From Acytostelium subglobosum LB1 (taxonomy: Eukaryota; Evosea; Eumycetozoa; Acytosteliales; Acytosteliaceae), in contig NW_012236490.1 in the NCBI RefSeq assembly GCF_000787575.1, forward strand, positions 1-49,592: DNA of 49,592 bases, in the 5' to 3' direction. Numbering within the stretch: position 1 is the stretch's first letter; each line of letters starts with the position of its first letter. The notes beneath the pieces were generated by a model. The model searched no databases, was not told where the DNA came from, and worked only from the letters and a program-made list of their open reading frames with translations. This document shows, in pieces, positions 75 through 37,201 of the stretch. A program made the translations under genes and the position numbers.

Positions 75-414
75 CCTGATCAAGCCAAGCATTGAGCATT
101 TTAGACACAGGATATATGCCTATGCCTATCGAATAACATACGTAACATACGTCATACGATCAACATTTTTATTACTTATACTTTGTTGCCACCCTCGTAG
201 CCGGCGTGCTGCGCTTAGCCTATCTAAATAAAGTCCACAATTTATTTTTAGTTAGCCAGTTATTTATTATTAAAAAATGATGAATTGTAGAATTGTATTG
301 TCGTTTATATTATTGTATTGTATATATTGATTATATGACGTTCGTCTGTAGTCTGTATGTAGTAGTGTTCGTTTCTCTCATGTGAAATGGGACAGGTGGT
401 GGATTGGATGGGGA
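75..414. other. Intergenic, no gene seen
   Basis: AT-rich sequence between the terminal repeat and the 3' end of the first minus-strand gene. The only open frame here is short, low-complexity and starts inside the repeat. Nothing functional is recognisable. Confidence 0.5.
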
Positions 415-3217: not shown

Positions 3218-3426
3218 TTTGTATGTGTTATTGTATTACATATCTCTATCCTGCTGTGATGTTTGCAATAGGGAGATGATCTCTCCAACGAATGGCAGTT
3301 CTTTAAACTTAAACTTTAATTTCGAAAAGTGGCGCGCAAAAAAGTTGTGGCTGAAGGTACCCATCAGCTTTGGTTGTCGTTTGTTGTCGGACTTGGATTG
3401 ATGTACAGGCCGACGGCAGGACACTA

Positions 3427-5977: not shown

Positions 5978-6522
5978 ATGTTTAATAATCTTTTTGTCTT
6001 TTCTTAGGCCTATCATTCGATAGCTTGAGAGTTGGGCTTTCTATATCTTGAGTTGTAGGGTAGTTGGTTGATGTTGAATCAAACAAAGTGGGGTCGCCAG
6101 ATGGTGATCTCGGCTGAGCTGATCGCTCAATTGATGCAGTGGAGAGTCTGTCTGGTCCTGCAGGTACAGTGGGTGGGTCTAATGGTATGGCTGGATTGGC
6201 TGGTGCACTTGGGACATTCTTTTTTTGGTCTTCCTCTCTTCTTCTTCTCTGTTGGTGGTGTAGGGAAGACTAGGAGGAGTCGAGGTGTCGCACTGCAGCG
6301 CAACGGATGTTGTAACATTAAGGCGGTCTCCAACGATGTGTTGATTGTCCAAACAATATGCTGTTATCTTGTCCGTCAACTCGCTTCTCTGGCACTGAGT
6401 GAGTGCTTGTCGTGCAAAGTTGGTTGCAAAGAGCTGACCAAAGGGTTCCAACACACCATGGCGATATGCTTGCAATAGTTTCCTCGATATCCACTCTTTC
6501 CGAGAGTAAATGATGGGCAATC
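5978..6522 (-). mobile_element. Mutator-like transposase fragment (SWIM finger, AT-hook), inverted copy A
   Basis: The 545 bp are the reverse complement of 29800-30344 with no net length change; the two copies pair at constant coordinate sum 36322. On the minus strand it encodes a SWIM-type zinc finger remainder (CPSFTLGKSGYRGNYCKH, the CxH half), then, after a frame change, an AT-hook (KKRGRPKK) and a CxxC-containing tail. SWIM fingers followed by AT-hook/zinc-knuckle tails are typical of the C-termini of MULE transposases. Here the 5' half, including the CxC of the SWIM finger and the DDE core, is absent. The segment directly abuts the 5' side of the next gene. Confidence 0.75.
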
Positions 6523-6584
6523 ACTCTGGCGCCTTGGTCGAGGTCGAAATGTCCTGTCCAACTCAATGAGGACAATCGAGCGTC

Positions 6585-9294
6585 TTGCTCAAGCGATGCA
6601 ACCTAAAGATGAAGCCAGAGGGTACTGTTTGGACGAGACGTGGCAAATCAGTACCAATGCCTGCACAGTATCGATTCAGTCAAGCCAAGCCTACCTTTCA
6701 TCAATGTCTCCAATTGCTTGCAGTCATGGTCAGGAGGGAAGATGGACTCACAGATCTCATTGAAGATGAAACTGAGAGAGTAAGACAATCGCCAGGCTCC
6801 AAGTGAGTGATTGATTGAGTGCATTAACTAATACTATCATCAACAACAACAACAAAAAGGCCAATGTAGTTAGACTCTGGGAGATGATATACAAGTTGGT
6901 TATCTTGCTACTCGATCACACCATTGTCATCAAGTCCTATCAATGGAGAGTGTTGTGTGAGAGGTTTGGCAGATTGCTAATCAATATTTACAACATTGAA
7001 CCTACCTCTTATCTTCACATCTTCATACATCATTCTGGCGAATATATGGAGCTGTACGGCTGCTTAATGATGTTGTGTAACATCGCATCTGAAGGTAAGC
7101 CATGTGTTAGTACTATCACTATTCATTCAATGCTCTGCGACCATTTTGGACTAATTGTTAACCCAAACCTTACAGCCAAGCATGGTTCCAACAACACAGC
7201 CATTAAGGCATCCAACAAACAGAGACGACCTGGACAGATATGCAAGCAACAGGTGACCAGGGATATGATCATGACCAAGCTCATTGAGATCTATCGAAAG
7301 GATGGAGTAGCACTTGCCAGCTATGTGAGCCACTCGAGGAAGTTCTATGAGGACAACTACAACAAACACATCAAGGGCCATATCAACAACTACATGGCCG
7401 ACGTTGCCTTCCGATCTACATTTGGCCTGGAGCCTGACGACTTGTCTCATCCACCACGCCCAACTGTCTTCAAGTTGAATCAGATGGTAACGGCAATGAC
7501 CAACGAAGAAGGCGACGATTATAAGAGCTGGTGGCCTGGTGAGGTTGTTGGCTATGACCCTGAGAATGTGACCTATGACATTCGATTCTGGTTTGTATTA
7601 TAGTCCGACATCATGTAGAGAGAGAGACAACATACACTAACACATACACTCCAATCAATGATCACAGTGTCAAAGGTCAAAGGAGGACATATCTATTTCA
7701 GACAGGAAATGACTATGTTATTGATAAAGGCATTTCCGAGGCCAACATCATAGAGCACATCATTCAAGAGTGTCAATCAATCAATAGTAGCCAAGTAAGA
7801 GATGGTCTTGTCTGTCTATTCCACGTACCTAAAGTCAAACACTACTATCGATCGACGCTACACTTGAATACTGTCGGTGGGAAGCAAAGACTGACGGCCA
7901 AGGTGATGGATGGCAAGTATGCCAACAAGAGCTATCCTGTGAACGATCTAAAGGGCATCTTCGCACCTTGGGATTGTGAAGTCACAAAGTTGCCAACTGG
8001 CCGCTCTGCCCGTGACTTGATAGACTCTGATGTTCCTCCATTCACCTATGATGACCTACCAGAGATCAAGGCCAAAGGTATATATACACACACCTGCTCG
8101 AAAGGAGTAACCAAACACATGATCAACAACTTACACCATGATATCCCCACAACAATAGTGAAGGCATCCATTCAAAAGCGACATGGTATCTCCAACAACC
8201 TTGTTCAGGATTGTATCCAGGAGCGTTTGGCCATCCTTGCTGTGAGGAATGACTTGTTTCATACACCTATGACAAGCAATCTTGATGTTGTTGATATTGC
8301 AAACAGGATCCGATCAATGATGACAAAGCTACCACCGACTACACACTTTGAGAACTCTATTGCTCCACTACCAACAATGTCAAACACAAGCAACCACAAT
8401 AGTAACAACGACGATGAATGTCTACTATTAGAGGAAATGGAGATTGACACATCAGACAGCGAGCATGGTGTCAACAACACCAGAAACACCAGCAGCAGCA
8501 GCAGCAGCAGCAGTACTACTACAACAACGACAACCACTACAACGACCACGACCAGCACCTCAACTACCAGCTCCAACAACAATGCATATCTATATGTGAT
8601 CATGACCACTGGAAGTCATCACTCTGTACTGATTGGCCACCAACAAGCAAGGTGTCTGATTCACTTGGACTCTTTGAACATGCATAAGTCCATTGCACAA
8701 TCCATCACCAACAAGTACAACGAGTCGGTTACAGATGATGATGATAGGTTCGTGCTGTACTCCAACACTGGAACAATCCAACAAGATGTATGGAGTTGTG
8801 GTCTTTGGTCAATCTTCTTTGTTGGATATGTTATCAAGAGGTGGAAATGCTTCCGAGGAAGGCAGTGTACACAACAAGTTCGTGGCATTATCAAGAAACT
8901 GGAGTCAAAGAAGCCTGAGCAGGTCATTGATTCTGTGCTCGACAGTTACTTGGCATCGTTCCTTGACAACCATCACACTTCTGGAGGCATCTATGACATT
9001 GCAAACGTGGACGAGACCACTCCAATAATGACATCAAAGAAGAGAAAGGCGATGGGATGCACTGCTATATCAGATACATCGACAAAGAAGAGTCGTACGA
9101 CAACCACGACAACAACAACTACTACACAAACAAAGAAACCAACAAGGTTGTCACTACTTCTCAACAACACCAGCAACAACAATAACAAGCAGCGAGTAGC
9201 GACGGACAAGGGCAAGATGACAGCCACCCAGAGTAAGGCGACACAAACAACAACAACAACTACTACAACAAAGAAAAGTGCTAATAAACATTGA
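6585..9294 (+). CDS. Multi-exon transposase-like protein with C-terminal Ulp1/C48 peptidase domain
   Basis: Five exons can be joined in phase by removing introns at about 6780-6859, 7095-7175, 7595-7675 and 8078-8158, all GT-AG and 80-81 nt. The N-terminal third has a His/Glu pattern seen in transposase-like proteins (FIHHSGEYMELYG ... ASEAKHGSNNTAIKA across the second intron). A WWPGEVVGYDP ... YDIRF segment resembles a Tudor/PWWP-type barrel. After Ser/Thr/Asn runs comes an Ulp1-like cysteine peptidase with SHHSV (His), LIHLDSL (Asp) and QQDVWSCGLW (Gln/Cys). C48 enzymes cleave SUMO-type modifiers, and such domains are carried by several transposon classes. The 5' end lies against the inverted MULE fragment and has an upstream stop, so the first exon may be truncated. 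Which transposon superfamily it belongs to is uncertain. Confidence 0.6.
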
Positions 9295-10010: not shown

Positions 10011-10878
10011 CTACTTGGTTGATCGATAACTTCTGGTGTACATTTGAATGATTTGTTCAACATTGTCAAAGTCTTCAGCATCTCTGCACTTCAGCTTTGT
10101 CATCGATTGGAGGTATTGGCACAAATGATCCTCACCAATGCTATCTGTTGATGCGATCATGCTGAGGAAGGACCTTACGAACTTGTACACATAGAGTCCA
10201 CATCGCCAATTACATGTCTGCACCTTATTCTGTAGGGTCTTGATGGGGATGGCTTCATACTTCTTCTTCTTGACAACATTCTTGTAATCATCATAGAAGT
10301 TGTTTGCGTAGTCTTTGTGGGACCCAAACAACAGAGAATCCAGATGCAAAAGATAGGCACGATCGTTGGCAGTGATGGTGAACATGACAGAGTGATGGCT
10401 TTGGATGGAGACGGTGATGATTCCAAACTTGGATGTGATCAATTTGGAGATTCCCCTAACGCAACTTTTGTAGTGACCTTCTGGTGTAACTTCTAGAGTG
10501 CGTACCAACTGTTGCAAACCCATCTCTTTGATTGTCGTCTCGACTAGGTCAGTAAGCAACACAGTGTTGAGGCCTTGAGTGTCTTTGAACCTAGAGAGGA
10601 GTTGACCTGAATAGTATGAACGACAAAGTTAGTAAAGTGAGTGGTGGCCACCTGTGTAATCATTCAGAGAGATACATACTCTTGTTAGAGATCATGGGAT
10701 TGAAGGCATACAGCCGTCCATGCTCCACTGGATGCTTGAGAAAGGCGTGGGCTGGAGGATTGAAGTTGGATATATGCTCAACACAAGTTTGAAATAATTG
10801 GGAAAATTTAATAAGGGAAGATGGGTTAGTGACTAACCTATTGTGGAAGAGGGTCAGCGAGAATGGAAATTTCATCAC
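10011..10878 (-). CDS. Ulp1/C48-like cysteine peptidase, two exons visible
   Basis: Exon 1 (10878-10680) joins exon 2 (10606-10011) across a GTATGT...TTCAG intron, with phase preserved (AAG A|GT CAA). The protein has the C48 order: SHHSV (catalytic His), LLHLDSL (Asp) and NKVQTCNWRCGLY (Gln-equivalent region and Cys). It is shorter than typical Ulp1 enzymes and lacks a substrate-recognition N-terminus, so more 5' exons may be lost: the apparent ATG lies at the edge of the satellite array. It resembles the peptidase end of the neighbouring convergent gene only in motif order, not closely in sequence, so they are not simple duplicates. Confidence 0.6.
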
Positions 10879-12802: not shown

Positions 12803-14670
12803 TTAGTGGTGTTGTTGGACAATGATTCTTCGATTAATGATTGTTTCTGCTGGATAGAATCCAAAATGAAAAGGGAATTTGGAAAACATGACAACTGTGT
12901 CATTGTCAATCATTCTGCAGGTGATGGTGGATGACATTTTGTTGTGGTGGGTACTGTTCTTTTTGTCGGTGTATTTGACTGCAACTCGAACAGTCAGGGC
13001 TGATTGTAGTGCTAGGATGAGATTGGGGGGAGGATTAAGCATGAAGTGGGATGGGTGCAGAAATACTGTCGGTTGTGACTCGAAGCTTCTGGCTATAATG
13101 ATCTCTTTGATCCTTCTCCTTTGTGACGGAGTTGGTAAAGATAAGGTGCGTTGGATGATGAGGGTGACAAGGTTGGGGAGTTGATCGATGATATGGTCCA
13201 ATCTGCCTGTGAATTTTGCACCAAGAGTCAATTTTGTGACTGATGGTATCGACTCTAGTGGAAGCGGCTGATTGAATTGATATGATAAGCAGAGGTTTGT
13301 CATCGAATGAGGTAAAGTTCCAGATATGAATGGCTGATTGTAAACACCATGTTTGCTGTTAAATGATAGTTTGATGAGAGAGTTTGGGATGCAACCTTTG
13401 AGCAATGGAAGGTTGTAAGACAGGCCTAGTATTAATTCTGTAAGTGAGGATGGTAATGCCCCAGGAAGAATATGTTGATTAAAATGATATCCAAATTCCA
13501 ACCTTGTTACTGAGGATGGGATAAATTGGGGGCGTATTTTTTGATTAAATCGATTCCCAAGGAGCAAATGTGTCACTGAGGAAGGAACACCGTGGAGGAC
13601 ATCCTTTGGGAAGTTCTGCTTGGGATTAAACTCTAATTCCAATGCAAAAACAGAAGAGGGAATTGATCCTGGGGGAATGTGATTTGGAGAGAACCAGCGA
13701 AGCTTTAAAAGTTTGACTGAGGAGGGAAGCACCCCAGGCGCAGGCTCACCACCATCGACTATTGTCGCGGATAAGGTGGCAACACTTGATGGAATGTAAA
13801 CTGTAGACAAAGAGAGGTCAATTCTCTTGCCGATAGTCAAGTCTGTAACAGAGCTGGGAATGCAACCTGGCAATAACTGTTGTCCAGCGCGAAAATCGAG
13901 TTGTGTAACAGATGAAGGGATTATGCCCGGTTTGATATCCAAACTAAACTCGCCGCGTAGTTGAAGTGATACAACGGATGGGGGGATAGATCCAGGCAGT
14001 AAAATGTTGTTACTGCTATGCTTGCCAAAAGATAGCTTGGTTAAAGACGATGGAAGATCACCTGGGTGAATGAGCTGATTGTGAATTGAAGCAAATTTAA
14101 GCTTGGCCACTGAGGAGGGAAAAAGACCTTGCGTAATTGGTTGTTCAATACAAGATTGTGTTCCAAAATTCAAGGATGTGAGTCCTTTGGGGAAGGTATT
14201 TTGGAAGGGCTTCTCGATATCGAGCACGACCTCTGCGACAGTGTTTTGGAGAGCGGTAATCTCTCCATTATCAGAGACGTATGTCTGATGAACATCTCGA
14301 GTTACAAAATACTTTGGGTAACCCAAATATCCATCTTTGTTGCCACTACTGCTTGGAAATGATAGATTGATTGATTTCTCTGTAGTGAGTGTGTTGTGTT
14401 TGTGATTGAGATAGGTGTTCAGAAGACAATCAGGTCAGATGGGTTTTTTTTGTCTAATAAAAGACAGATACGCCTGCCCATTTACTTACTCAAAAAATGT
14501 CGTAGTGTGAATGCAGATGCATTGCTATGTGGAATATTAAGAAGACTTCCTTGCAAGAAGGTATTTAGTTGCTTGCACACCAGAGAAATACATAGTCTGT
14601 CCATTTCGTCGAGCAATTTGAAAATATTCATAAGGGAATTCTGGCTCTGATGCAATAGTATGTGCAACAT
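12803..14670 (-). CDS. F-box / FNIP-repeat protein
   Basis: Two exons (14670-14490 and 14379-12803) join across a 110-nt GTAAGT...CTACAG intron in phase, giving about 585 residues. Exon 1 resembles an F-box helix pair (LLDEMDRLCISLVCKQLNTFL). Exon 2 carries about fifteen FNIP-type repeats of roughly 22 residues, recognisable by IPSSVTxLxLG and FNQ motifs. FNIP proteins are a hallmark expansion of dictyostelids and are thought to act as substrate adaptors of SCF ubiquitin ligases. The last about 100 residues, after the repeats, are unique. No frame damage is visible. A start at Met15 of exon 1 is also possible. Confidence 0.8.
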
Positions 14671-17477: not shown

Positions 17478-19850
17478 TCATTGTGTGTAATAGTGTGCAT
17501 ACGAATTATTTCGGTGGCTTTTGGTCAGGTTGTGAAGTGACTTTTGATCGAATTGCTCTGATAGCGTTATCTCTGTTGCTGCAGGGATGTCATGTTTTGC
17601 AATTACAACCCATGTATCAATGTCTTGAAAGTATCTCGTGGATGACTTGATGAGAGATGTAGCGTTTGGCTCATGGTTGCATGCACGTGTTGCATTCGTT
17701 GTGATGTCGCTGCACATCCTTACTTGATTACCTGCCCCTCCAAACATTATTGGCTTTGGTCGTGTGATAGATTGCGGCGGTAATAGAGGTATGCCATTGG
17801 TAATGACGCGATTATGCAGATCCAAGTGATGGAACGATGGAACGTAATATTGGGTGATGACTGTGCCAGCAGAAATATCAATTTTGCAGAATAAGCCGGC
17901 GAGTCCGGATTTGTTGTAATGGACATAGAGATTTCCGTCAAGATCGTCGTATGTGACTCCATAGATATCATACGGTCCCGCTCGGGTCGTGTAGTCTGTT
18001 GGGGATGCCTCTATAGCAATGGGTGCAGGTGCGGTAGTGGAAGTAGTAGGTGTACATGATGAGTCGGTTTGTGATTGCAAAGTTGGAGCTGATGGTGATG
18101 CCAATAGCTCCTTTCTGATCGTGTCAATTATAAAGGGATGATATTGATTCCCTGATCCATCTCGTAAATCTGAATTTGATGTTGCTATTTGCATTATTCT
18201 GTCATGACAGCTCGCCTCGCTTTCCATTGCAACGAACTCCAGCTTCTGATTTATGACCAACTGAATACTACCATGCGATTGATCGTAGTGACGGGGCAAT
18301 TGTGCCGTTTTCCGATGCATGAATGCTCTAATATTGTTTGTTGGCCACCTCTTCCTCGATGACCTATTGTTGTTATTATTATTATTGTCCGCCGATGATG
18401 ATGATTGTATACTGGGTGCGGCGGTATCAGCGGCGGTCAGTACCACCTCCTGTGATTGTGGTTGTGCCAATGCCAAATTGCCAGATGAAAAAGGATGAGG
18501 ATGCTTGATGTATGTATAGCAGGTATATGCACTTATGTTGTACTGTCTCTGCCATGAAGGGATGATGACTGGAGTAGGTAGTGCAAGCGCTACCAATGAA
18601 ACGAAACTGATATTTTCGCTGCTCCAAATACTGTGCAGCTTCAGAAGAATAGATCCAAGCAATGTGTACGCTATGGATTCTAGTGCAACTGGGCCACTAC
18701 TCGTTGGCACTTCCTTTTTGGAAAAGTGTGATGATAGCCAATGTAATGCCTGCTTCTTTAGTGAGACCACATCCTCTTTTCTTCCATTTGGGTTGATACC
18801 AGCTATACCCTCTTTTATGAAGTCCAAAATTCTTTTAAGGACTTGCATTGGTCTACACATGCTATCGACAGAGTCAGCGTGGGTGTGCTGGGCTTTGGTA
18901 TTGTTGGGAGAAGAATGAGGGGAGCTCTGGGTATATTGTCGGCTGGACTTGTTGATTCGAGATGATCCAGGACTGTAGTCATACTTGTTTTCAGTGAGCT
19001 CCCAATCAATGATTGTTGCCTCTAATGTATCACGAATAATGTACGAATGGGCGATGCCAGACACATCCAGTGAAATGAACTTATTGACTACCGCGAAGTT
19101 GATCACAACATTGTGCTCGTGGAGGTCTCTATGGAAGATGTTGGTGACATCCCCAATGACGATAATCTGATATACTAGTTGTAGTAGAACAGACTTCAGA
19201 ATGTTGAGGGAGATGAAGCGAATGGTGTTGTCATCTGGTTTGTCACAGGCATTCTTGTTAAGTAATGTATGTAGCGATATTCCACATCCGAGGGTGACCA
19301 ATGACCTCTGGGGGTCGAGTAGTGAAGTCTCATCAATATGATGGGGAATATCTTGACCATGAGCATGTTCAATGCGAATGCGACCAGCTTTGTTGTAATA
19401 GATGATGTCATGTGGGTTCATTATGAGCTGGATATTGTCACACACTGGCAGTAGTTTCTGTATGCGTCGTAGTGATTCGAGTTCATTGTGAGATCCACTA
19501 TGATTATCCATATGACTCAGTCTCGGTTGTGCGACATCATCGTCTGCCTCTCCCTCCTCTATTTGTCGCTTTAACTGTGGTGCACTCTCATTCTTCCTCT
19601 CTTTCCCTCCCCCTCCACCTTTTCTGCCTCCTTCTTTCTGTTTCATCTTCTCTTGTTGTTGGGGCGGCTGCTGTTGTGCTACTGCTCTTTCTTTGATAAA
19701 GATGGAGCTTATATGAGAAAAGCCGCATGGTATTGCCCTACTGATATGTTGCGATACATCTAGCTGTATAACATTGTTTGTACTGTTAGATACGTGAGCT
19801 GTATTTGATACACACAGATATGTGTGTGTGAATGATGTCATGTTGTTCAC
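17478..19850 (-). CDS. Haspin-like kinase region fused to SET-domain-like region
   Basis: One uninterrupted 790-codon frame with ATG start. Residues about 138-300 resemble the catalytic half of Haspin-type kinases: an LLQLV-rich helix leads to HRDLHEHN (240-247), and IIDWEL (280-285) stands where Haspins have their variant DYT motif instead of DFG. A clear glycine loop and ATP-binding Lys are not visible before it, so the N-lobe is divergent or an upstream exon is missing. Asn/Ser-rich linkers follow. Residues about 625-770 look like a SET domain: SGLAGLFCKIDISAGTVI, then RACNHEPNAT (the NHxxPN pseudoknot motif) and an EITL segment. Haspin phosphorylates histone H3 Thr3 and SET proteins methylate lysines, so a chromatin-modifying role is plausible. 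It is inferred only. Expression and activity are unproven. Confidence 0.65.
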   Translation of the reverse strand: MNNMTSFTHTYLCVSNTAHVSNSTNNVIQLDVSQHISRAIPCGFSHISSIFIKERAVAQQQPPQQQEKMKQKEGGRKGGGGGKERKNESAPQLKRQIEEGEADDDVAQPRLSHMDNHSGSHNELESLRRIQKLLPVCDNIQLIMNPHDIIYYNKAGRIRIEHAHGQDIPHHIDETSLLDPQRSLVTLGCGISLHTLLNKNACDKPDDNTIRFISLNILKSVLLQLVYQIIVIGDVTNIFHRDLHEHNVVINFAVVNKFISLDVSGIAHSYIIRDTLEATIIDWELTENKYDYSPGSSRINKSSRQYTQSSPHSSPNNTKAQHTHADSVDSMCRPMQVLKRILDFIKEGIAGINPNGRKEDVVSLKKQALHWLSSHFSKKEVPTSSGPVALESIAYTLLGSILLKLHSIWSSENISFVSLVALALPTPVIIPSWQRQYNISAYTCYTYIKHPHPFSSGNLALAQPQSQEVVLTAADTAAPSIQSSSSADNNNNNNNRSSRKRWPTNNIRAFMHRKTAQLPRHYDQSHGSIQLVINQKLEFVAMESEASCHDRIMQIATSNSDLRDGSGNQYHPFIIDTIRKELLASPSAPTLQSQTDSSCTPTTSTTAPAPIAIEASPTDYTTRAGPYDIYGVTYDDLDGNLYVHYNKSGLAGLFCKIDISAGTVITQYYVPSFHHLDLHNRVITNGIPLLPPQSITRPKPIMFGGAGNQVRMCSDITTNATRACNHEPNATSLIKSSTRYFQDIDTWVVIAKHDIPAATEITLSEQFDQKSLHNLTKSHRNNSYAHYYTQ

Positions 19851-20948
19851 TCAATACATACTCATTACAACTCGTTCTCTACAAGCCAGTATGCTCGCTC
19901 GTACGCATGCTCGTACGCTCGTACCTCGTACGATCATATGAAAAATTTTGGTTTTGGCGCCAACAAACAAAACCCACCTTTTTTTCTTTTTTTTTTTCTA
20001 ACTAACACAACCATGGACAAGGCTCCGATCCGACCGGATCGGATGACTGTTTCTCTCAAAATCCATCCTGATATTTGTATGAGAGTCCAAACAAGTTGTA
20101 TGATGAGATGACGATCGATCGGATATATATCCGTCATCGACGGATTCGGATCGGAGCCTTGACCATGGACCATGGCGAGTTCTTCGACCAGGCGAAAGAT
20201 CATACCATACGCCATACGGGATATGGGTGGTCCGGTCCGGTCAATAAATATGATATACTTATGTCAATACTGCCCTTGTTCCTATTGCATTTGTTTTCCT
20301 CATCGTTGCTATCTCTTGTCTTAATGTTTTGCTGTTTTGATTTCTTCTTAGGTGTGTCAGGGTCTGGCGATTGCCTTCCATCCTCAGAATCCTTCCTCTT
20401 GCTGTTGTCTTTGTCCTTGCCTTTCTTCACCATTCCTCGATGATCCTCTGAACTAGACAACTGGACACCACACCACAATCAGAAAAGTAGACACCACTAA
20501 GATGTAGTCTACAACAAGGAATAGCTGGAATATGATTCAAGTTGCGATAGATGCTGATGATCATAACAGTGCGTGCGCTACATAATATATGTCTTCAGGT
20601 AGGGTCAATCACGTGTCCTGTATCTGTTGTCCCGTATCTGTTTGTTCGTCTGTGTGTATTGCAATGATTATGATTATTTATGAACTACATGTCTGTTCAA
20701 ATTTTTTTGGTCAAAACACATTTAATTAATTATTATTGAGCCTTGAGCCAATAGTGTTAATGACTTTAGTGGCTGGCAAGTGGCAGGCATGGCTATTGTT
20801 GCTTACTCCTCTCCCACCACCACCAACTGTATCGACCACCCTATCCTATTGTCACAGACAGATATAAGATATATGCAGAGCAATGAGCTAAAATATGAAT
20901 CACGAGCTGTCGATATCCCCATCATTTGAATCATCAACAAATAACCTG
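19851..20948. other. Intergenic with one strong palindrome, no firm gene
   Basis: This is mostly low-complexity or AT-rich sequence. A minus-strand frame at 20434-20200 encodes a very hydrophilic Lys/Asp/Ser-rich peptide (VKKGKDKDNSKRKDSEDG), which could be a short exon, but no partner exon was found. A T-rich tract lies at 19979-19998. Confidence 0.35.
20011..20168. repeat. Inverted repeat, 22-bp arms around about 113 bp
   Basis: The arms at 20011-20032 and 20147-20168 pair with one mismatch (core AAGGCTCCGATCCG and its complement). CCATGG lies at both outer ends. The interior is rich in further CGGATC/GATCGG palindromes. It looks like a hairpin-forming or MITE-like insertion. Confidence 0.65.
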
Positions 20949-21197
20949 CTAATCTTCACTCCACTCGACTTTGTTGTGGTGTGCTATCCCGTGATCGAAC
21001 TTACTAAGATTAACAGGTTCTGGCTTGGGCACAGGGTACTTGATGTTGGTAGCAATTGATGGCAAGGTCGCAATGAACTTACGATCACCAAGGGTTGCCA
21101 GATATGTATGTAGCTGGAGAACAGGACCACGATCGTACAGGTACTGGATGCTGCTTGAAGGCTGGCTGGCGTACAGTGGCAAAACAGATACGGACAT
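20949..21197 (-). CDS. Small conserved-looking protein, unrecognised
   Basis: A complete 82-codon frame, ATG in an AT-rich context, ending in acidic residues (KVEWSED). It has no low-complexity runs, unlike its surroundings, and has balanced amino-acid use (GDRKFIATLPSIATNIKYPV). This suggests a genuine small gene, perhaps organellar or part of a larger complex. No signature residues identify it. Confidence 0.5.
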   Translation of the reverse strand: MSVSVLPLYASQPSSSIQYLYDRGPVLQLHTYLATLGDRKFIATLPSIATNIKYPVPKPEPVNLSKFDHGIAHHNKVEWSED

Positions 21198-21432
21198 ATA
21201 ATAACATTAACACATTGACATCAGTGGATTCTTCACTCGATGGGTGGGTACAATAGTGTCCTATACAGATAGATTATCATACAGATACGTACGTATCAGT
21301 ATAACACTGCAACTATACTACACTAGTATTATACATAACATAAATGTCTCCTCATCGATCATACAATCATACATTTATTACTTATTACAGATAAATCACA
21401 CATCACTTTATAGTTATAACTCATAACTCCAT

Positions 21433-21702
21433 TTGATTTACATATATAGTCGATACCATTCGATAGCACTTGTACTTGTTGTTGTGTACTTTACATTGAT
21501 GTCTATCATCATATTTATACGATCATTTATTACAGCAGATAAAAACAGAACGAGGCTTATCGACTATATCTCAACTTTGACACCTGATCCACAATCAATC
21601 GACATGGTGTCATTTCGCTCCACAAATCATATAATACTAGGCTGTTTAAGAGATTGCGATAAAGTCAAACAGACCACAGACTGTGACTGTCAAGACCTCT
21701 GA
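21433..21702 (+). CDS. Possible small membrane-anchored protein
   Basis: An 89-codon frame with one hydrophobic segment near the N-terminus (ALVLVVVYFTLMSIIIFI), then a polar, Cys-containing tail (CLRDCDKVKQTTDCDCQDL). It could be a signal-anchor or secreted peptide, or the last exon of a longer gene. No family is recognised. Confidence 0.4.
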   Translation: MIYIYSRYHSIALVLVVVYFTLMSIIIFIRSFITADKNRTRLIDYISTLTPDPQSIDMVSFRSTNHIILGCLRDCDKVKQTTDCDCQDL

Positions 21703-21972
21703 CGTTTGGTTGGCAATTAATATAAAGAAACAAGGTGAAGCAGTGTAATTAACCTTATCACAATTGCCTCATTAACTCGATTTGTGAACCACCGAGTTAG
21801 TCGATATGTAGATACTGATCGCTGATCGTATGATGTATGTATGACCATACCATTCGATGGTCGATGGCGATGGGTATATATCATGTGTCTAAATGCTTGT
21901 TGTTGGTACCTGTAGATCGATCCTTGTTAACAAGTTAATAAAGCATAAAGTAAAGTAATACTCTTCCCCTAC

Positions 21973-22070
21973 TGGCTGCGGGAATAATCTGTGTTTAAAA
22001 TGTGCCCGCATATAGAATGTGGGAACGAACTAAATTCAATTTATTCCCGCACATTTCTTGCCTCACAACC
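21973..22070. repeat. Short dispersed palindromic element (copy 2)
   Basis: It starts TGCGGGAATAA and contains the inverted complement TTATTCCCGCA near its end (about 22040-22050), so it can fold on itself. It shares TTTAAAATGTGCCCGCATAT and ATTCAATTTATTCCCGCACA with the copy at 15640-15810. It lies just upstream of the SET pseudogene. Confidence 0.6.
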
Positions 22071-22121
22071 ATCAATGCTTACATTCACTAAACAAATACA
22101 AATACATCTATCTAATTATCA

Positions 22122-22828
22122 ATGACTACTACAACCACCACTGCACCAATGACATCCGATTGGGTGGATGTCCCTCCAACGTACTCCACTCTAGCCAGTG
22201 CTGACAAGCAGCGCATGGACTTCATATACTACACGGAGCACGGAGAGCGTCACTGGGCAAGATGGGTATAGGATGATCGCTCGCAAGCGCACAATGTCAA
22301 AGTTGCTATCAAAAGGATGAAGAAGCTGGTCGCTCTCCATGGCCCACTCAACATCTGCACAGTGGCTCATTGTGTGGAACGCTGACCAAGTGCTGGACCT
22401 ACTGCAGCAAACATCTACGGGAGTGCTACTCACAGGTGAAGATGAGACGAGCAACATCCTACACGCTGGCCTCGGTCTCTTTGCCATACATTATAGCGAG
22501 ACTCCTCGACCCGCAAATACCTATATCGGTGGCCTCAACAAGAAGCCCAAGAAGAGTCCAGTGTTTGAGAAGGGAGCACACATAATCATGTACACTGGCC
22601 ACAATCTGACACCCACAGAACACAGAGCAATGATGGACGAGTTGAGACAGGTTGGCAAGCAGCCTGCCTGAGTACACATTGGAGATACCAAGTGCCAAAG
22701 ACAGGCCCAGGGTGTACGTCGATGCAAGTGATATGTTGCTATCATCTGTGGCTAGGTTCATCAACTTCCCGACACCAGGCCCACGTGGGAAGAGTGCCCA
22801 CTCGGTTTCCATCCAGCCATGTACTTGA
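22122..22828 (+). pseudogene. SET-domain protein, frame-broken
   Basis: Coding-like pieces lie in several frames. From ATG 22122: SDWVDVPPTYSTL ... HGERHWARWV, then an in-frame TAG at 22269. From about 22339 in another frame: GLGLFAIHYS ... KGAHIIMYTGHNLTPTEHRAM, which fits the first half of a SET domain (GxGLFA, then a turn and YTG). From about 22673 in a third frame: RVYVDASDMLLSSVARFINF, which fits the second half (usually ARFINH), ending TGA at 22828. The His and Cys normally following RFIN are replaced. No splice sites restore the frame cleanly, so I call a decayed SET gene. It is not a simple copy of the SET region at 17.5-18 kb. Confidence 0.55.
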
Positions 22829-22849
22829 CTAGGGGGGTGTTGTCTGTCA

Positions 22850-23522
22850 TCATTTGGTTATCTTCCTGGTGGGGATTCCAATGATTGTATATCTCTTTTG
22901 TTGTTCACCTGTCATCGGCGGTAACTCTTTGCTGTTATTTTGACAGGTGGTGAGGACACCTCGCAAGAGTGGATCGACATCCTTTCCTGTGCCATTGTGT
23001 TGAGGGTTGGGTTTGATGTCATCATCGTAATTGCCAGCCACCAACACTACTGGAGTCGGCACCCGAGTACTCATCATTGTCCTCATCCTCATCATTGTCC
23101 TCGTCTTCATTATCATCGTCCTCGTCATTATCGTTGTCTTCATCCTCGGATGAATCGGGTGTCGCTTGTCGCTGGTCTCGGTTTCCTTGGGTGACAGTTG
23201 CTTGTTGGCAGCAGCGGTAGTAGTGTTGTCGTTGACTGCCTTCCTTTTCTTCTTCACTTCACCAGATGCTTTGTGACGCTGTTTTTGTTGTCGTTGTCGT
23301 TGTTGTTGAGGTATGTGGTGGCGATGATGTGATATCATCGAATCCACCATCCATTGGGACCTGTCTATGATGATCGTTATCATTCATGAGCATTGTTGGC
23401 GCCTCGCGGATGGCACCGATGCGCTTGACCGCTTCAACCACCAGCTTGTTGGACTGACCAATCTTTGTGATGAGAGCTTCCCAGAAAGATGGTGGATGCA
23501 GACTGGGATGGGTTGGAGTGGA
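22850..23522 (-). pseudogene. Degraded coding sequence cut by the retrotransposon
   Basis: Minus-strand frames 23543-23259 and 23383-22850 overlap in different phases and read like one broken protein. It has a helical start (FWEALITKIGQSNKLVVEAVKRIGAIREAP), a basic patch (KKKRKAV) and an acidic GAN/GAC-repeat region that is open only in the wrong frame. The LTR retrotransposon inserted just upstream, so the 5' part is separated. No family is recognised. Confidence 0.4.
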
Positions 23523-23840: not shown

Positions 23841-23893
23841 TGAACCTATTATTATTATCGTTATTATATTACTATTAATTACTGCTATCAAAA

Positions 23894-26800
23894 ATGTCTG
23901 ATACTGCTTCCAATACTGATGTGGAAATGGAGGAGAAGCCGGGAGTTGAGAAGGCGACGGAGAAAGATGTTGTGAACGCCGAGAACGCCAACAAGTCGAA
24001 GGAGAGTGCGTCCGAGCCTGCTGCTGCTGGTGCCAATGCTGCTGTCAATGTCAATGATGATGATGAATTACCAAACAATGGAACCTCTATTACGACGACA
24101 ATCCAGTACGGAGCGGTCACGATGTCCGACACCCCGCCTGCTCAACCTGATGCCAGTCCTTCAGCTGCAGGATCCAAGCCTGCTCCAAAGGTTGCCAAAC
24201 CTGCGCCTACCATGCCCAAGAATGTGCCAACTGCGTCTACACCTGTNTCAACTGTATCCAAGGGAGCACCAACCGATAGTGGAATTCGTACGCGCCAACC
24301 TGACAACCGGTTCGCCCAACACNTGGACAACCGCGTCCAAGCGCTCGGATTGCAAGCCAGTGCCATGAGCCACGGTTACCCTATGACGCCTGCCTACCGA
24401 GACACGCCACGCACACCTGAGACGGAGATGGCCGACGACGAAGACTCGACCGCCAGNGAGAGGTTAGCAAACGCCATGTTAATCATTGCTGACAAGTCCA
24501 AGACACCGAACGAGAGAACGTTGGCCTTGAAGGGACTAATCGCGTCCCAACCGGGACTGACCACTTACATGGAGTGGGAGAAAAAGAACGAGCTGGTGGA
24601 GAGCGTAATGGGCGTAATTATGATATCTCCACATCCAGACAGGCTTGACGTTGTGGAACTGATTGAAAGGAGTGCCAGACAACTTTCCATGCCCACAGCC
24701 AAGTTGCCAAAGTTCACTGTTACTGATGACTTCAACAAGTACTTCGAGGAGAACTGCAGCGTCCTCATGGCCTTGAATGAAGTAATGCGCATATCCGCCA
24801 TCTGGAGTGCCATGACACCGGAGGCTCAGAAGTCTCTTGGCTTGGACATCCGTGTTACCAACTGGAACAAGTTCTCCAGCGCAATGATCAATCGCTTCGC
24901 TTCCCACAAACCACGCACTGAGTTGGTGAGGGAATTGACAAACTTGCGTTACACTGGTGATACCGATGTCTCTGCCTTCACCGAGAAGTTCAGGAAGGCC
25001 TGTGCAGCTGTCGAGTCATCGGGCGTCAAGGACCTCAAGACGTTCAAGACCGTCATGTTCACTTCCGCCTTCCCTGCTTCTGTCCGTAGCAATTTGCCAA
25101 GTGACCTGTATCTCAATGGTGCGGATTACACTGGTGAGTTAGCGCCGATGGTCACTGAACTGAGCAAGAGTGTTGCCAAGAACAACAACACTCCCAAGGG
25201 TGATAACAAACCTTTGACCAAGGATGCTATCAAGACGGCTACTGATAAGAAGAGAAAGCTGGAGCACACTTCCACGTCTACTCCCAAACCTGAGGGATGT
25301 TTCAGATGCAAGTCTCTCAAACATCAGGTGAGGAACTGCCCGTTGCCAGACGACCGCACTGAAGAGGAGAAGAAGGCAGCTGAGGAGAGGAAGGCACAAT
25401 GGATCAAGTCCAAACAACCGGCCAAGTCGACGTACCCTGGTACCAAGACACCAGGCAAGACCAAGGAGATTTCAACTGTTGCCATTGTTGATGACGACCG
25501 GCTGACCAAGGTCAAGATTGATTCGGGTGCTGACACCTCAGTCTTGCCTGCGCACTGGGCTCACAACATGCCATTGGAGAAGTCCGACACTGTACTTAGA
25601 GGATTCGATGGATCAACTGTAGCCTCTAAGGGCATAACTGTAAAGGAACTTAAAGTAAAGAACAAGTTTGGTCTTTATGTGTCTGTGTCTGTGTGTTTTG
25701 AAGTGATTGATTGTGATGAGAATGCCTCGATACTGATCGGTAGAGACCATCTTCAACACACCGCATCAACACTCGACTTTGGTTCAAACATCTGGTCATT
25801 TAATGATGACAAAGGTCGACGTCAGGAAGTACCTCTGGGTGATTCGAAACGAAAGACCTTTACTGTTTATGTGGGGGGTCAGCTGCATAGAGTATCTGAA
25901 ATATGCTATGCTGGCGAGGTGGCTTTCAACCCCACAGAAGATGGCACCAAAGCAATGGGCCGCAACATTTCAAAATTGTCAAAAACTATCGTGAATGAGT
26001 TTTGCACATTATTGGAATCAACTGGCAGAGAGAGAACGACTCTACCAGTGAGTCGACCTGGGTGGGACTATGAGATCTTCACCAATGGAGAGATACCTAA
26101 ACCTTCGATGTTTCCTGTACCCCACAGACTGAAAGGTGAGCTCAAAGCTCAACTGGAGGACTACTTGAGGAGGGGCTGGATCTCTCGCGCTGAATCACCT
26201 TATGGTGCTGCTGTGATGTTCATCAAGAAGCCTGGCACGAACAAGTATAGATGTGTGGTTGACTACCGAGCGTTGAATAGTGTCAGTCACTACTCACACC
26301 ACGCAATACCCAACATCTCTAAGTTGATCATGTCGACTAAAGGATACAAATTGTTCTCTGCCATTGACTTGGCTCGAGGATATCAAAAGAAAAAACTAAA
26401 AAAAAAAAAAAAAAAAAAAAAAACAGGAATGAGAACTGAGTTCGGTTCCTTCGTCTGGAACGTCGTGCCCATGGGCCTAGCCGGAACTCNNNNNNNNNNN
26501 NNNNNNNNNNNNNNNNNNNNNNNNNNNNNNNNNNNNNNNNNNNNNNNNNNNNNNNNNNNNNNNNNNNNNNNNNNNNNNNNNNNNNNNNNGATCGTCCATT
26601 CATATGCGACAGTGACGCAAGCAAAGGTGCGATTGGCTATGTGATCTACCAACTGGGTGATGATGGAGAGCGACGACACATTCTGTATGGGTCTAAGCGA
26701 TTCAACGACAGTCAACTTCGCTACACTGTGCTTGAGCGCGAGATGCTAGCTGCAGTAACTGCTCTGATTGATAATCATTATTTATTGTTTGGTTATCCAA

Positions 26801-28467
26801 TCACGATCAACTGTGATCACCGCAACATTGTATTCCTGTATGAGCAATGTAAATATCCGATCAGTGATCGTATTACTCGATGGATACAGATCCTAAGTAA
26901 GTACAATCCCAAACTGGAGTACATCAAAGGCTCGTCCAACATCTATGCTGATGCATGCAGTCGATCAATTGATGTCAAAGAGTTGATGGAGCGCGTCCGA
27001 TCAAACAAATCGATTGATGTGGATGATGACATCCCCATGCCAGATGAACCTGTACTCGCCAAACATATCGCATCTGTCGATAATGTGACCAACACAGCAA
27101 CTGTTGCTGCTGCCACCGCTTCCGCTCGCAGTATAGAGGAATTGTCCGAACTGAATATGCTCCACGCCTTTGATGATGATACCATCATTCCACTGATACT
27201 AGCTGGCTACGAGATAGAGGACAAGTTAGTCAACGAGAAAACGTTGCACCGTGATCAGACACCTTACACCGTCGATACCAGAGGCTTGCGCCTGACGAGT
27301 GAGAACAAGCTGATTGTTCCACGTGTGAAGAAGGTCATTCGCAAAGTGATATCCATCCACCATGATCACTGGCTAGGAGGACACTTTGATCACAAGAGAA
27401 CGAGCGAGAAGATTAAACGTAGATACTACTGGCTGACGATGAACGCTGACATCCTCAACTACGTACAGTCATGTGTCATTTGCAAGCTGTGCAGTGACCA
27501 TCCACCGAGGACGATGGGCTTGCTGGAGCCCCTAACCATTCCACAATATGTGTTTGAATCAATCACCATGGATATAATTCCAAAGCTGTCCACTCATACT
27601 ACTAAAACTGGTGTAGAGTATGACGGAATACTGTTGGTGTCCGATCGATTCTCCAAATTCACATGGTTGAAGCCATTGATCAAGGGTGCGAAGAGCATGG
27701 ACATCATTGATCTGTTACAAGAGATGTTCTGCACTTTTCCACGACCAAGTGAGATCGTAACTGATAACGATCCATTGTTCACAGCTCATGTCTTCGTTGA
27801 ATACATGAAGGCTAAGAAGGTCGAGATACACATGAGTCTACCGTATCGCCACAACCCTAATGGCCACTCTGAGATCAGAGTACGACTGGTAAAGAACGTC
27901 CTGCGCAAGATGTTGTTGCAACGTGAGTTGTTAGCAAGGTACTTGCATGATGATCCAACTGGGATCCTGGAGGAGATTGACCTCGACGATAGCATGACCG
28001 ACATACGTAAGAACTGGTTCGTGTGTTTGCCACTGATCCAATATGCCATCAATAACACACTGTCAACGTCTACTGGTATGACGCCTTACCGTATCATGTT
28101 TAACAGAGATGCCGAACCACTGACTGTTTCAACTTCGGATACAACACCGAAAACTGTATCTGTACATTTGAATGAATGGAACAAAACAATGAAGATTGTG
28201 CGTGATCACCTTCTGTTGGCAAGTAAAAACATGAAGAAGTATTATGACTCAAGGAAGAGGCCGACGAACATTCACCCTGGTGATTATGTGTTCCGTCGTT
28301 TGCACGACCACGAACGTTCAAAGAAGTTGGACGCGGTCTACACTGGCCCATATTTGGTTGTTAGAGTAAACAACAACAACATCACCTTCCTTGATGACAC
28401 TGTCGATCCAGCGATCGAGAAGACTGTACATGCTGCTCTACTCAAAAGGCTGTTCCAAGATCACTGA
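23894..28467 (+). CDS. Gag-Pol polyprotein (interrupted by assembly gap)
   Basis: The frame opens at ATG 23894. Gag ends with a CCHC knuckle near residue 468 (CFRCKSLKHQVRNC). The protease has IDSGADTSVLP near residue 543 and ILIGRDHL. The reverse transcriptase starts around residue 740 (RRGWISRAESPYGAAVMFIKKP, CVVDYRALN, AIDLARGYQ) and resumes after the A tract at MRTEFGSFVW. The 100-N gap removes the YxDD box. After the gap come RNase H (CDSDASKGAIGYV, DACSRSI) and integrase, with its HHCC finger ending CVICKLC, core Asp in TMDII, Asp in VTDND, Glu in GHSEIR, and a C-terminal GPYLVV module. Gag and Pol share one frame. The frame change at the gap reflects unknown gap length, not a real frameshift. 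Three single Ns lie in gag. Confidence 0.9.
26396..26589. other. Homopolymer A tract and 100-N gap inside reverse transcriptase
   Basis: Between ARGYQ and TGMRTEF the sequence is almost pure A and translates as a Lys run. It occupies about the length of the expected QIxIxPxxxxK segment. The gap 26490-26589 follows. A conserved catalytic domain would not tolerate this, so it is probably a sequencing or assembly error. Confidence 0.8.
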
Positions 28468-29468: not shown

Positions 29469-30344
29469 TTGGACTATCGGGAGCGGATGATGACAATGCT
29501 CTGTGGGCCTATAAAGCGATGTTCCGTCTCGACCCAGAAGGATGATGAACACTATAAATGCCCTACCACCATCGCCGATAAGATTAGGCTCACCGCTATA
29601 CTCATACTCAAGACACATGGGTCATATGTCCCCAGCAACAGCAGTGGTAGTAGTGTTGTCGTTGACTGCCTATGCCAAGAAGAACAAGTTGATGGAGATC
29701 ATGCAGATCAACAATCAGAAGACCAGTGTTACCATCTCCAGCATGTCACATTCACAGAGGCGTTGCTACAACATCAGATTGGAGAGTCAGATCACATGCG
29801 ATTGCCCATCATTTACTCTCGGAAAGAGTGGATATCGAGGAAACTATTGCAAGCATATCGCCATGGTGTGTTGGAACCCTTTGGTCAGCTCTTTGCAACC
29901 AACTTTGCACGACAAGCACTCACTCAGTGCCAGAGAAGCGAGTTGACGGACAAGATAACAGCATATTGTTTGGACAATCAACACATCGTTGGAGACCGCC
30001 TTAATGTTACAACATCCGTTGCGCTGCAGTGCGACACCTCGACTCCTCCTAGTCTTCCCTACACCACCAACAGAGAAGAAGAAGAGAGGAAGACCAAAAA
30101 AAGAATGTCCCAAGTGCACCAGCCAATCCAGCCATACCATTAGACCCACCCACTGTACCTGCAGGACCAGACAGACTCTCCACTGCATCAATTGAGCGAT
30201 CAGCTCAGCCGAGATCACCATCTGGCGACCCCACTTTGTTTGATTCAACATCAACCAACTACCCTACAACTCAAGATATAGAAAGCCCAACTCTCAAGCT
30301 ATCGAATGATAGGCCTAAGAAAAGACAAAAAGATTATTAAACAT
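29469..30344 (+). pseudogene. Mutator-like transposase fragment, copy B
   Basis: 29469-29640 encodes HYKCP ... IRLTAILILKTHGSYVP, resembling the zinc-binding N-terminal DNA-binding region of MULE transposases. The DDE core is missing. From about 29670 the frame starting 29542 reads YNIRLESQITCDCPSF followed by GNYCKHIAMVCW, a complete CxC...CxH SWIM finger. A third frame (29989-30195) gives KKRGRPKK and CPKC. The last 545 bp are the inverted twin of 5978-6522. The frames disagree, so the gene is dead. The 3' LTR of the gypsy element ends 10 bp upstream. Confidence 0.65.
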
Positions 30345-30595
30345 ATATATTACAATCAAAGTCATAATTGAGAGGTTATTATCTGTACTTTTCTTGATTG
30401 ACTTGGGCTCAAAACACTTTAAGTCCAAAGGTCGTGCACGATTCGACCCAATTGGGTTTGGAAAATGTTGTGGCGTGGGTTGAGAAATGTTATATTATGA
30501 TGATTAATTTTGTTCTTTATTGTCCTCATATTATCCTCATTGAAAACCTACATACACAATTTTGAAGTTATATAATATATCTCTTTCTTTCAGCC

Positions 30596-30598
30596 ATG

Positions 30599-30648
<50 letters not shown>

Positions 30649-31918
30649 AGATGTAAATGAAGTAGTAAACAAGGAGTCCACCAATGACGACGCCTCCAAG
30701 AAGTCTACTCATGATGCACCAATCTGCGACGACCATATACCTCCATCAACGGCTCATTCTATTCTCGCTCATTCATCTGCGACTCATCCCCACATCACAG
30801 AGTCAATGTCTATGCAAGTGCCCGTTCCCTCATCCACAGCAACTACTGCGCCCATATCCACGCTTCCCCAAGTGACACCAACACTGCCATCCTATATTGA
30901 ACACCTCCGCATTGCCCGTGGTACAGATCCAAACAATGTTCGAGTCAATCTTCATTCATTTAAGGGGATCCTATGTTCTAAACCTGGCGGCAATGACCGT
31001 TCTGGTTGGCTTGACCAGAAAGTCATGGCATACTTTGCACAAAGATTTCACTATGACATTTTCTTACCGTGGGTCAATACCAAGTCATACTGTGAATCTC
31101 CTTCGACCTTCCCGGTTCGCATACACGACACACATACATTGGCAATGCTCAAAGATCATCCAAACTCAGTGGTCAGCTATGGAAAAGAGGTTGAGATTCA
31201 CCTCCTACCCATCGAACTAGGCTGTCATTGGTCACTTCTCCTGGTGGTATCATCCCACAAACTGGCACAGGCATACATTCACATGGACACAATGGACACA
31301 ATAGGCACAAAGAACATGCACATACCCCCAGAGGTCTACAAATATATGGGCATTGATGACTCGCAAGTCAAAGGATATCCACTCTCATGTTGGCCAGTCC
31401 CAAACAACTTATACAACTGTGGTCCTGCAACGCTATACTCAATGGAACTGGTGCTTTGGATTATACGACATTACCTGACATCATCATCATCATCAGCCGA
31501 TGACATCCCACGTGTCCAGCTGCCCAAGAATGCTGGAATCTACATGGACATCGATCTTGACGCAGACATTGCATCTCAAAGAGACCACTATGGCCAGGTA
31601 ACTGAGAGTCTTGTGAATATTTTGCAGGTCTACAGGATGAAGAAAAACAACCGTGAATTCTCAATGCAATCCGATAATGATGTCAACCCTGTGCTATTCT
31701 TCGAGCGACACTACAGAAAGAAGATGATTATCTACTTTTTTCGCCATGAGGACCTCTCACCACTTTATGACCCGTCTGGGGCATTTAGACCTAAGAGCAC
31801 TGGACCATTTAGCAAGCCTAAGAGTATTGATCAGATCTACAATTTCTATGAGTCTCTACCAATACCAGAGGCATCCTTAAAGAGAAAGAAACCGGATTCA
31901 GATGACTTAGAGGAATAA
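30596..31918 (+). CDS. Ulp1/C48-like cysteine peptidase with N-terminal polyAsn
   Basis: 440 codons, uninterrupted. It starts with Met plus 16 Asn, then a Ser/Thr/Pro-rich linker. From about residue 100 a folded domain begins. WLDQKVMAYFAQRF (138-151) matches the conserved entry helix of Ulp1 enzymes. The catalytic series is His211 in GCHWSLLL, Asp231 in IHMDTMD and Cys275 in NNLYNCGPAT. The usual oxyanion Gln appears to be Asn. A splice-acceptor-like TTTCTTTCAG lies just before the ATG, so an upstream exon is possible. The C-terminus is basic and Ser/Pro-rich (LKRKKPDSDD). It is the best-preserved of the three Ulp1-like genes here and, like them, is adjacent to transposase debris. Confidence 0.7.
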
Positions 31919-36891: not shown

Positions 36892-37201
36892 TCTTATTGC
36901 TCCTCTATGTGTTGTTTGTGCGTGTTGTCTTTCTTCTCTTTGTCAGTGCACTGATAAGAATGAGAATGATCCGCGCCACTTTCTTCACCCTGATGACATG
37001 AACTCTCTTCACATATATTACCTAAAGAGGAGATGGGACTCAACTCCAGCCATCAGTTATTATTTTTTTTGAATAATCTCAAACTTTGATTCATTACAGA
37101 TTCATTCATTCCTTCTTTCATTCATTCATTCATTGGTACCAACTGTATACATATATTCATATACATTGTCCATCGCATAGTATTGCTTTGATTCATTCAT
37201 G

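What the first reader, a model, noticed from the sequence alone, without database searches (positions are those of the whole stretch)
17478..19850. Single-frame fusion of a Haspin-like kinase and a SET-domain-like region
One 790-codon frame contains HRDLHEHN followed by IIDWEL in the Haspin arrangement, and separately a SET-like SGLAGLF...NHEPNA block. Haspin and SET enzymes are known histone-H3 modifiers, but I know of no standard protein joining them. If real, it would couple phosphorylation and methylation of chromatin in one polypeptide. Its location among transposon debris raises the possibility that it is an element-borne or recently captured chromatin effector. The kinase N-lobe is not obvious, so a pseudokinase or a missing exon is possible.
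Basis: partly seen in the sequence, partly recalled or inferred. Interest (0 to 1): 0.8.

Follow-up and report, generated by a model that had tools for sequence, protein, structure and literature searches.

The report
Haspin-like kinase joined to SET-like domain
A social amoeba carries a small family of genes that join a kinase resembling the chromosome kinase Haspin to a worn-looking SET (methyltransferase-type) domain, a combination we did not find elsewhere; the gene looks real, but neither activity has been shown.

Summary
In detail: window 17478-19850 (-) is one 790-codon frame with the named motifs. The host is Acytostelium subglobosum LB1. The SET match is significant (PF00856 E=9.9e-6, over cut-off). 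No Pfam kinase model matches, but a two-sequence profile of the kinase region ranks 8 Haspin sequences first in the PDB (E 0.024-0.086; 13 of 14 hits are protein kinases); one shuffled and one reversed control hit nothing. A second gene on contig C12, publicly annotated as one 692-aa protein, has the same order at 28-34% identity. A truncated third copy gives dN/dS 0.34 (0.22-0.54; NG86) over residues 1-228, with gaps in multiples of three. So this is a lineage-restricted Haspin-like-kinase/SET-like gene family in repeat-rich contigs. Catalytic D, N and D persist in both full-length copies; the SET part lacks the catalytic tyrosine here and has lost NHxPN in the paralogue. I read it as a probably active kinase with a probably non-catalytic SET module. 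A dual phosphorylation-methylation writer is not excluded but unlikely. No transcript evidence was available.

The parts
17478..19850 (-). 790-codon frame, kinase-like/SET-like fusion gene (P0001); first ATG codon starts at 19841
   Evidence: dN/dS 0.34 (NG86) against a paralogue over residues 1-228 only
19689..19709 (-). SSIFIKE (res 48-54), candidate beta3 with ATP-binding Lys K53; unproven
   Evidence: kept in close copy P0004; similarity to the region upstream of the C12 gene not better than shuffles
19512..19679 (-). low-complexity Q/K/G/E-rich insert, res 58-113
   Evidence: alignment with P0004; gaps there are multiples of three
19449..19490 (-). helix-C-like segment HNELESLRRIQKLL (res 121-134), Glu E123 invariant in 3 of 3 aligned copies
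18981..19223 (-). kinase C-lobe core (res 210-290): helix E, HRDLHEHN (240-247), strand pair, IIDWEL (280-285)
   Evidence: PDB profile searches, 8 Haspin sequences on top; positions
18036..18815 (-). linker region res 346-605 with few positions shared with the paralogue (e.g. RWP/KWP) and a poly-N tract
17562..17897 (-). SET-domain match, res 652-763
   Evidence: PF00856 E=9.9e-6 over cut-off; 1.5e-5 in the genome scan
17655..17687 (-). RACNHEPNATS (res 722-732), SET motif III-like
17550..17576 (-). TEITLSEQF (res 759-767), SET motif IV-like without the catalytic Tyr
19850..22900 (.). 5' flank with stretches repeated on contigs C3, C12, C46, C35, C56 and elsewhere on C14
17272..17463 (.). 3' flank similar (67-68%) to window 414-631 and to C12:32728-32936

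Best explanation
The frame is a real protein-coding gene of Acytostelium subglobosum, one of a small lineage-restricted family (two full-length genes, one 3'-truncated copy, one 5' relic). Its product has a divergent Haspin-like protein kinase domain (about residues 40-345, with a low-complexity insert in the N-lobe), a long poorly conserved linker, and a C-terminal SET-type domain. I propose that the kinase is the working part: the catalytic Asp (D242), the metal-binding Asn and Asp (N247, D282) and a helix-C Glu (E123) are kept in both full-length family members. I propose that the SET-like part is mostly non-catalytic and docks the kinase on a peptide or chromatin target. Shown: the frame, constraint on residues 1-228, the SET profile match, the Haspin-first ranking, the repeated fusion. 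Inferred: kinase activity, loss of methyltransferase activity, docking role, nuclear target.
For: Open frame. SET PF00856 E=9.9e-6. Kinase profile A2 (P0001+P0002) against 177,635 PDB sequences: 14 hits at E<=10, the top 8 all Haspin (0.024-0.086), then 3 CK1, 2 LAMMER kinases and 1 phosphofructokinase; with helix C and the third copy added, 8 Haspin and 3 CK1, nothing else; one column-shuffled and one reversed version 0 hits each. The alignment spans helix E, HRDLH..N, the strand pair and IID. hhalign of A2 to the genome's own Haspin-like P0005 (PF12330 5.6e-8) aligns helix E and the catalytic loop in register, E=5.7e-4, probability 30%. Paralogue P0002/P0006: kinase part 28% (E=3.6e-15) and SET part 34% (8.1e-10) in one frame; annotated as a single 692-aa protein across a 108-nt intron. 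P0004: dN/dS 0.34, bootstrap 0.22-0.54, all 8 gaps multiples of three.
Against: No Haspin or other kinase Pfam match for P0001 or P0006 at E<=10; the only Pfam hit of the paralogue's kinase fragments is a tRNA-synthetase model at 0.025-0.048, below its cut-off. PDB profile E-values are borderline one by one, and weaker with helix C added (0.063-0.23). K53 and the rest of beta1-beta3 show no significant similarity to the sequence upstream of the C12 gene (score reached by 1240 of 2000 shuffles). P0006 has no SET match; the SET pair profile finds 5 unrelated PDB chains (best 0.0097) and no SET protein; the SET fragment alone finds none. AlphaFold models failed (mean pLDDT 31 and 35). dN/dS covers residues 1-228 only and is 0.53 by YN00. 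G+C by codon position is nearly flat in the linker and SET part, so composition gives no extra coding signal there. No transcript evidence.
Confidence: 0.5

Rival explanations
1. Bifunctional chromatin writer: both the kinase and the SET domain are active and act on the same histone tail, coupling phosphorylation and methylation.
For: SET match above Pfam cut-off and NHEPN retained; kinase catalytic residues retained.
Against: Motif IV reads EITLSEQF with no tyrosine; no Cys after residue 724, so no post-SET cysteine cluster; the paralogue lost NHxPN and has no SET match. No substrate evidence.
Confidence: 0.12
2. Pseudokinase plus pseudo-SET: a structural or decoy protein of an expanding conflict-type gene family, neither part catalytic.
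For: Divergence from all Pfam kinase models, unproven N-lobe lysine, HDD instead of HRD in the paralogue, eroded SET, neighbouring frames with weak HSDR_N and SAM matches below cut-off and with a SUMO-protease-like region.
Against: Catalytic-loop D and N and the metal-binding D are kept in both copies despite 28% identity; helix-C Glu invariant in three copies.
Confidence: 0.2
3. The window copy is a decaying, unexpressed duplicate in repeat debris.
For: Repeat-rich flanks; a truncated copy and a 5' relic exist; no entry for this protein came up, although the C12 copy did.
Against: 790 codons without a stop; dN/dS 0.34 with 0 of 500 bootstraps at or above 1 over residues 1-228.
Confidence: 0.15
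4. Two unrelated neighbouring genes, or a chance frame; the Haspin resemblance is coincidence.
For: No Haspin Pfam match; borderline PDB E-values.
Against: Same order in a second, diverged, annotated gene; open-frame chance 8e-20; the first 8 PDB hits are all Haspin and both controls are clean.
Confidence: 0.03

Closest known systems
Haspin kinase family (PF12330; PDB 2vuw, 3dlz among the hits)
   Same: HRDLHxxN catalytic loop followed by a strand pair and IID, aligned in register.
   Different: Not matched by the curated family model; DWE in place of DYT (DYT as shown in the alignment); low-complexity insert in the N-lobe; a SET-like domain attached. The genome has a separate Haspin-like gene, P0005 on C21.
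SET-domain lysine methyltransferases (PF00856)
   Same: Profile match over positions 3-102 of 105; NHxPN-like block.
   Different: No catalytic tyrosine in motif IV, no post-SET cysteines; attached to a kinase-like domain.
SETMAR/Metnase (PMC9062482; abstract and start of text seen)
   Same: A SET domain joined to another module in a lineage-restricted fusion gene with a link to mobile DNA.
   Different: SETMAR joins SET to a transposase; the partner here is a kinase-like domain and Pfam finds no transposase in the frame.
HTH-SET-SUMO-protease-like frame P0003 on C12 of the same genome (our naming; the HTH is our reading)
   Same: SET domain fused to a second protein-modifying domain on a repeat-rich contig.
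   Different: Partner is a XopD/Ulp1-like cysteine protease; the two SET parts show no reliable similarity (hhalign probability 2.5%).

Membership tests
Haspin kinase | Match to curated model PF12330 over its cut-off | tested here: not met
   No match at E<=10 for P0001, fragments or P0006
Haspin kinase | Catalytic loop H-x-D-L-H-x-x-N | tested here: met
   HRDLHEHN in P0001, HDDLHIQN in P0002
Haspin kinase | Haspin-type strand pair between catalytic loop and IID; Haspin closest among solved kinases | tested here: met
   Top 8 of 14 PDB hits are Haspin, alignment through this segment; E-values borderline (0.024-0.086)
Haspin kinase | DYT in place of DFG | tested here: not met
   DWE (P0001), DWG (P0002); the Asp is kept
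Haspin kinase | N-lobe with ATP-binding Lys and helix-C Glu | tested here: inconclusive
   E123 invariant in three copies; K53 seen only in the close copy P0004
Haspin kinase | Phosphorylates histone H3 Thr3 (recalled) | not testable with these tools
   needs an assay
SET domain | PF00856 match over cut-off | tested here: met
   26.4 bits against 22.4; not met by the paralogue
SET domain | NHxCxPN block | tested here: inconclusive
   NHEPN present but shorter; absent in the paralogue
SET domain | Catalytic Tyr in motif IV (DY) | tested here: not met
   TEITLSEQF; motif recalled from general knowledge
SET domain | SAM binding / methyltransferase activity | not testable with these tools
   needs an assay
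Transposon-borne gene | Defined element ends around the gene in several copies | tested here: inconclusive
   Shared flanks and truncated copies; no common ends delimited; Pfam finds no transposase in the frame

The most novel reading that the evidence does not exclude
A repeat-associated family of mosaic chromatin effectors, in which SET modules are recombined with other protein-modifying enzymes (Haspin-like kinase here, SUMO-protease-like in P0003), includes an active dual writer that phosphorylates and methylates the same chromatin target.
Probability: 0.1. Interest if true: 0.85.

Novelty: new variant of a known kind. Interest (0 to 1): 0.5.

Why it matters
No relative outside this genome was found in the 5.8-billion-protein set (two of the three were capped at the candidates sharing most words), in viral contigs or in prokaryote genomes. 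Six paper searches listed no paper that describes a Haspin-SET fusion, judged by titles, abstract starts and term counts of the listed part only. If expressed, it would show a Haspin-type kinase and a SET module linked in one polypeptide in an amoeba whose stalk is acellular (recalled), and would offer a natural test of how a SET fold is reused once catalysis is lost.

Tried and rejected
Haspin by single-sequence scan: no Pfam match, no NCBIfam match for P0001 or P0006. In one search the paralogue's kinase fragments gave only a tRNA-synthetase model (0.025-0.048, below cut-off) and its C-terminal fragment only an Fn3 model (0.076, below cut-off). PDB by single sequence: 2 irrelevant hits; SET fragment none; SET pair profile 5 unrelated hits. 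Protein-set searches: region 120-790, 7994 candidates scored, none at E<=10; region 116-300, 264 candidates, none; profile A4, 1 hit (P0006) among 7998 scored. Searches were capped, so distant relatives could be missed. Viral contigs with A2 (251 pattern matches, none confirmed), A3 (87, none) and P0003 (no pattern match); prokaryote genomes with A2 (101, none). Two AlphaFold jobs gave mean pLDDT 31 and 35 with 3 and 4 sequences; I drew no conclusion from them and ran no fold search. N-lobe homology between P0001 residues 4-60 and the sequence upstream of the C12 gene was tested and rejected (1240 of 2000 shuffles reach the score). A proposed 85-nt first intron of the C12 gene gives an in-frame join but rests on my reading alone; the public model starts later. 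A missing exon in P0001 was looked for with one simple pattern (GTA[ATG]G..YAG, 50-250 nt, AT above 62%) and not found; other splice forms were not scanned. A Crinkler-effector reading of the neighbourhood was considered (listing only) and not pursued.

Full report
What is there. Window 17478-19850 on the minus strand is one frame of 790 codons, with the first ATG at residue 4. With the frame's own base frequencies, 790 codons without a stop have a chance of about 8e-20. G+C by codon position is nearly flat in the linker and the SET part, so composition adds no coding signal there. The window is the first 49,592 bases of contig C14 (88,011 bases) of a 30.7-Mb genome in 56 contigs. A profile search of the large protein set returned one entry, identical to the C12 paralogue over its whole 623-residue frame, on a contig of 41,299 bases (the length of C12), named a hypothetical protein of Acytostelium subglobosum LB1.

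SET part. PF00856 matches residues 652-763 at E=9.9e-6, over its cut-off, 1.1e-6 on the C-terminal fragment, and the genome-wide PF00856 scan lists the place at 1.5e-5. The NHEPN block is kept. The motif IV segment reads TEITLSEQF and has no tyrosine, and there is no cysteine after residue 724. In the C12 paralogue the C-terminal part is recognisably related (34%, E=8.1e-10) but has lost NHxPN and is not recognised as SET by Pfam. A profile of the two C-terminal parts finds 5 unrelated PDB chains and no SET protein, and the fragment alone finds none. The motif roles are recalled from general knowledge of SET domains. I conclude: SET-type domain likely, methyltransferase activity doubtful.

Kinase part. 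No Pfam kinase model matches P0001, two of its fragments or P0006 at E<=10. With a profile of just two sequences (P0001 and P0002), a search of 177,635 PDB sequences gives 14 hits at E<=10: 8 Haspin (0.024-0.086), 3 CK1-alpha, 2 LAMMER kinases and 1 phosphofructokinase. Adding the helix-C region and the third copy gives 8 Haspin (0.063-0.23) and 3 CK1, and nothing else. One column-shuffled and one reversed control give 0 hits each. The alignment to Haspin runs from helix E through HRDLH..N and the strand pair to IID. The genome's own Haspin-like gene P0005 (PF12330 5.6e-8; 7 PDB hits at E<=0.001, all Haspin) aligns with the profile in register over helix E and the catalytic loop (E=5.7e-4 but probability only 30%). 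The helix-C Glu (E123) is invariant in three copies. The ATP-binding lysine is not settled: K53 in SSIFIKE is kept in the close copy P0004, but the region upstream of the C12 gene does not align better than shuffles.

Is it one gene under constraint? Three facts say so. (1) A second locus, C12:25278-27149, holds the same order in one open frame, and the public annotation (SAMD00019534_125120, 692 aa) joins it to an upstream exon, which brings in the helix-C region; the intron removed is 108 nt. (2) A third copy on C12, truncated after residue 228, differs from P0001 with dN 0.18 and dS 0.53 by NG86 (0.21 and 0.39 by YN00); the NG86 ratio is 0.34 with bootstrap limits 0.22-0.54 and 0 of 500 at or above 1, and all 8 gaps are multiples of three. 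(3) Two copies at about 28-34% identity both stay open for more than 600 codons. The limit: the dN/dS test covers only residues 1-228. No entry for P0001 itself came up, so it may be unannotated in that set, or modelled at a very different length.

Family and surroundings. Search with P0001 gives 7 matches in the genome: itself, two parts of the full-length C12 gene, the truncated C12 copy, a 30-codon 5' relic on C3, and two at E 0.11 and 2.0 that I do not count. P0002 finds only itself and P0001. The 5' flank contains repeats shared with C3, C12, C46, C35 and C56, and the 3' flank has two partial relatives at 67-68% and one shorter match at 80%. The C3 relic is identical from the first codon of the frame for about 83 bases and then breaks off. 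By local BLAST, contigs C14, C12 and C3 share FNIP-repeat-type frames and SAM/HSDR_N-type frames (FNIP matches are strong; the HSDR_N and SAM matches are below their cut-offs). C12 also has a frame, P0003, with a SET domain (7.7e-5, just over its cut-off) followed by a cysteine-protease region; a profile of that region with window 30905-31600 finds only XopD SUMO proteases in the PDB (3 hits, 8.4e-4 to 0.023). Window 21974-22789 is 85% identical to C12:24006-24833, which covers the 5' part of P0003 and some sequence before it. So a SET module joined to another protein-modifying domain occurs in two gene types in this repeat-rich setting, though the two SET parts show no reliable kinship. I did not delimit an element that would carry the fusion gene.

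Reading. The most economical explanation is a lineage-restricted, constrained gene family whose kinase part is probably active and whose SET part is probably a docking or structural module. A dual writer remains possible. It works like a Haspin-type kinase by its catalytic-loop anatomy; it is not filed as a Haspin member because PF12330 and the DYT motif were tested and not met.

Literature. Genome paper PMC4334915 (passages): gene models came from ESTs, ab initio prediction and homology; the passages seen say nothing of this gene. Dictyostelium kinome PMC1420674 (passages) names Haspin among widely conserved kinases; the term 'SET domain' does not occur in its main text. SETMAR PMC9062482 (abstract and start of text). 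Paper searches for a Haspin-SET fusion or its parts listed 11 of 11, 20 of 151, 18 of 19, 11 of 11, 10 of 216 and 10 of 36 papers; none of those listed describes one, judged by titles, abstract starts and term counts.

Noticed in passing
L012:4094-5680 (-), C12; related stretch at window 21974-22789 (+): Frame P0003 with an HTH-like start (our reading), a SET domain (PF00856 7.7e-5) and a XopD/Ulp1-like cysteine-protease region: another SET fusion in the same genome.
   Followed up: partly
window 7579-9294 (+), 10011-10628 (-), 30566-31918 (+): Three frames with Ulp1/YopJ-clan-like His-Asp-Cys motifs (our reading); the third is 40% identical to the protease part of P0003, the second weakly matches PF03421 (0.0095, below cut-off).
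   Followed up: partly
window 2192-3235 (-): Adjacent frames with weak SAM_1 (0.053) and HSDR_N (0.0017) matches, both below cut-off, with relatives on C12, C3 and at C14:86418-86855.
   Followed up: partly
window 23879-28467 (+): Ty3/gypsy-type gag-protease-RT-RNaseH-integrase element interrupted by an N run.
   Followed up: no
window 12803-14434 (-), 36208-36942 (-): FNIP-repeat proteins, E=1.4e-62 and 5.4e-22.
   Followed up: no
window 5985-6602 and 29693-30337: Pair of stretches in opposite orientation whose translated frames are 100% identical, which suggests a recent inverted duplication.
   Followed up: no
G000 contig C48:22840-86466: 12 SET-domain matches within about 64 kb of one contig, an expanded SET family.
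   Followed up: no
L009 2200-2282 (C3): About the first 83 bases of the fusion frame are identical on C3, then the match breaks off abruptly.
   Followed up: partly
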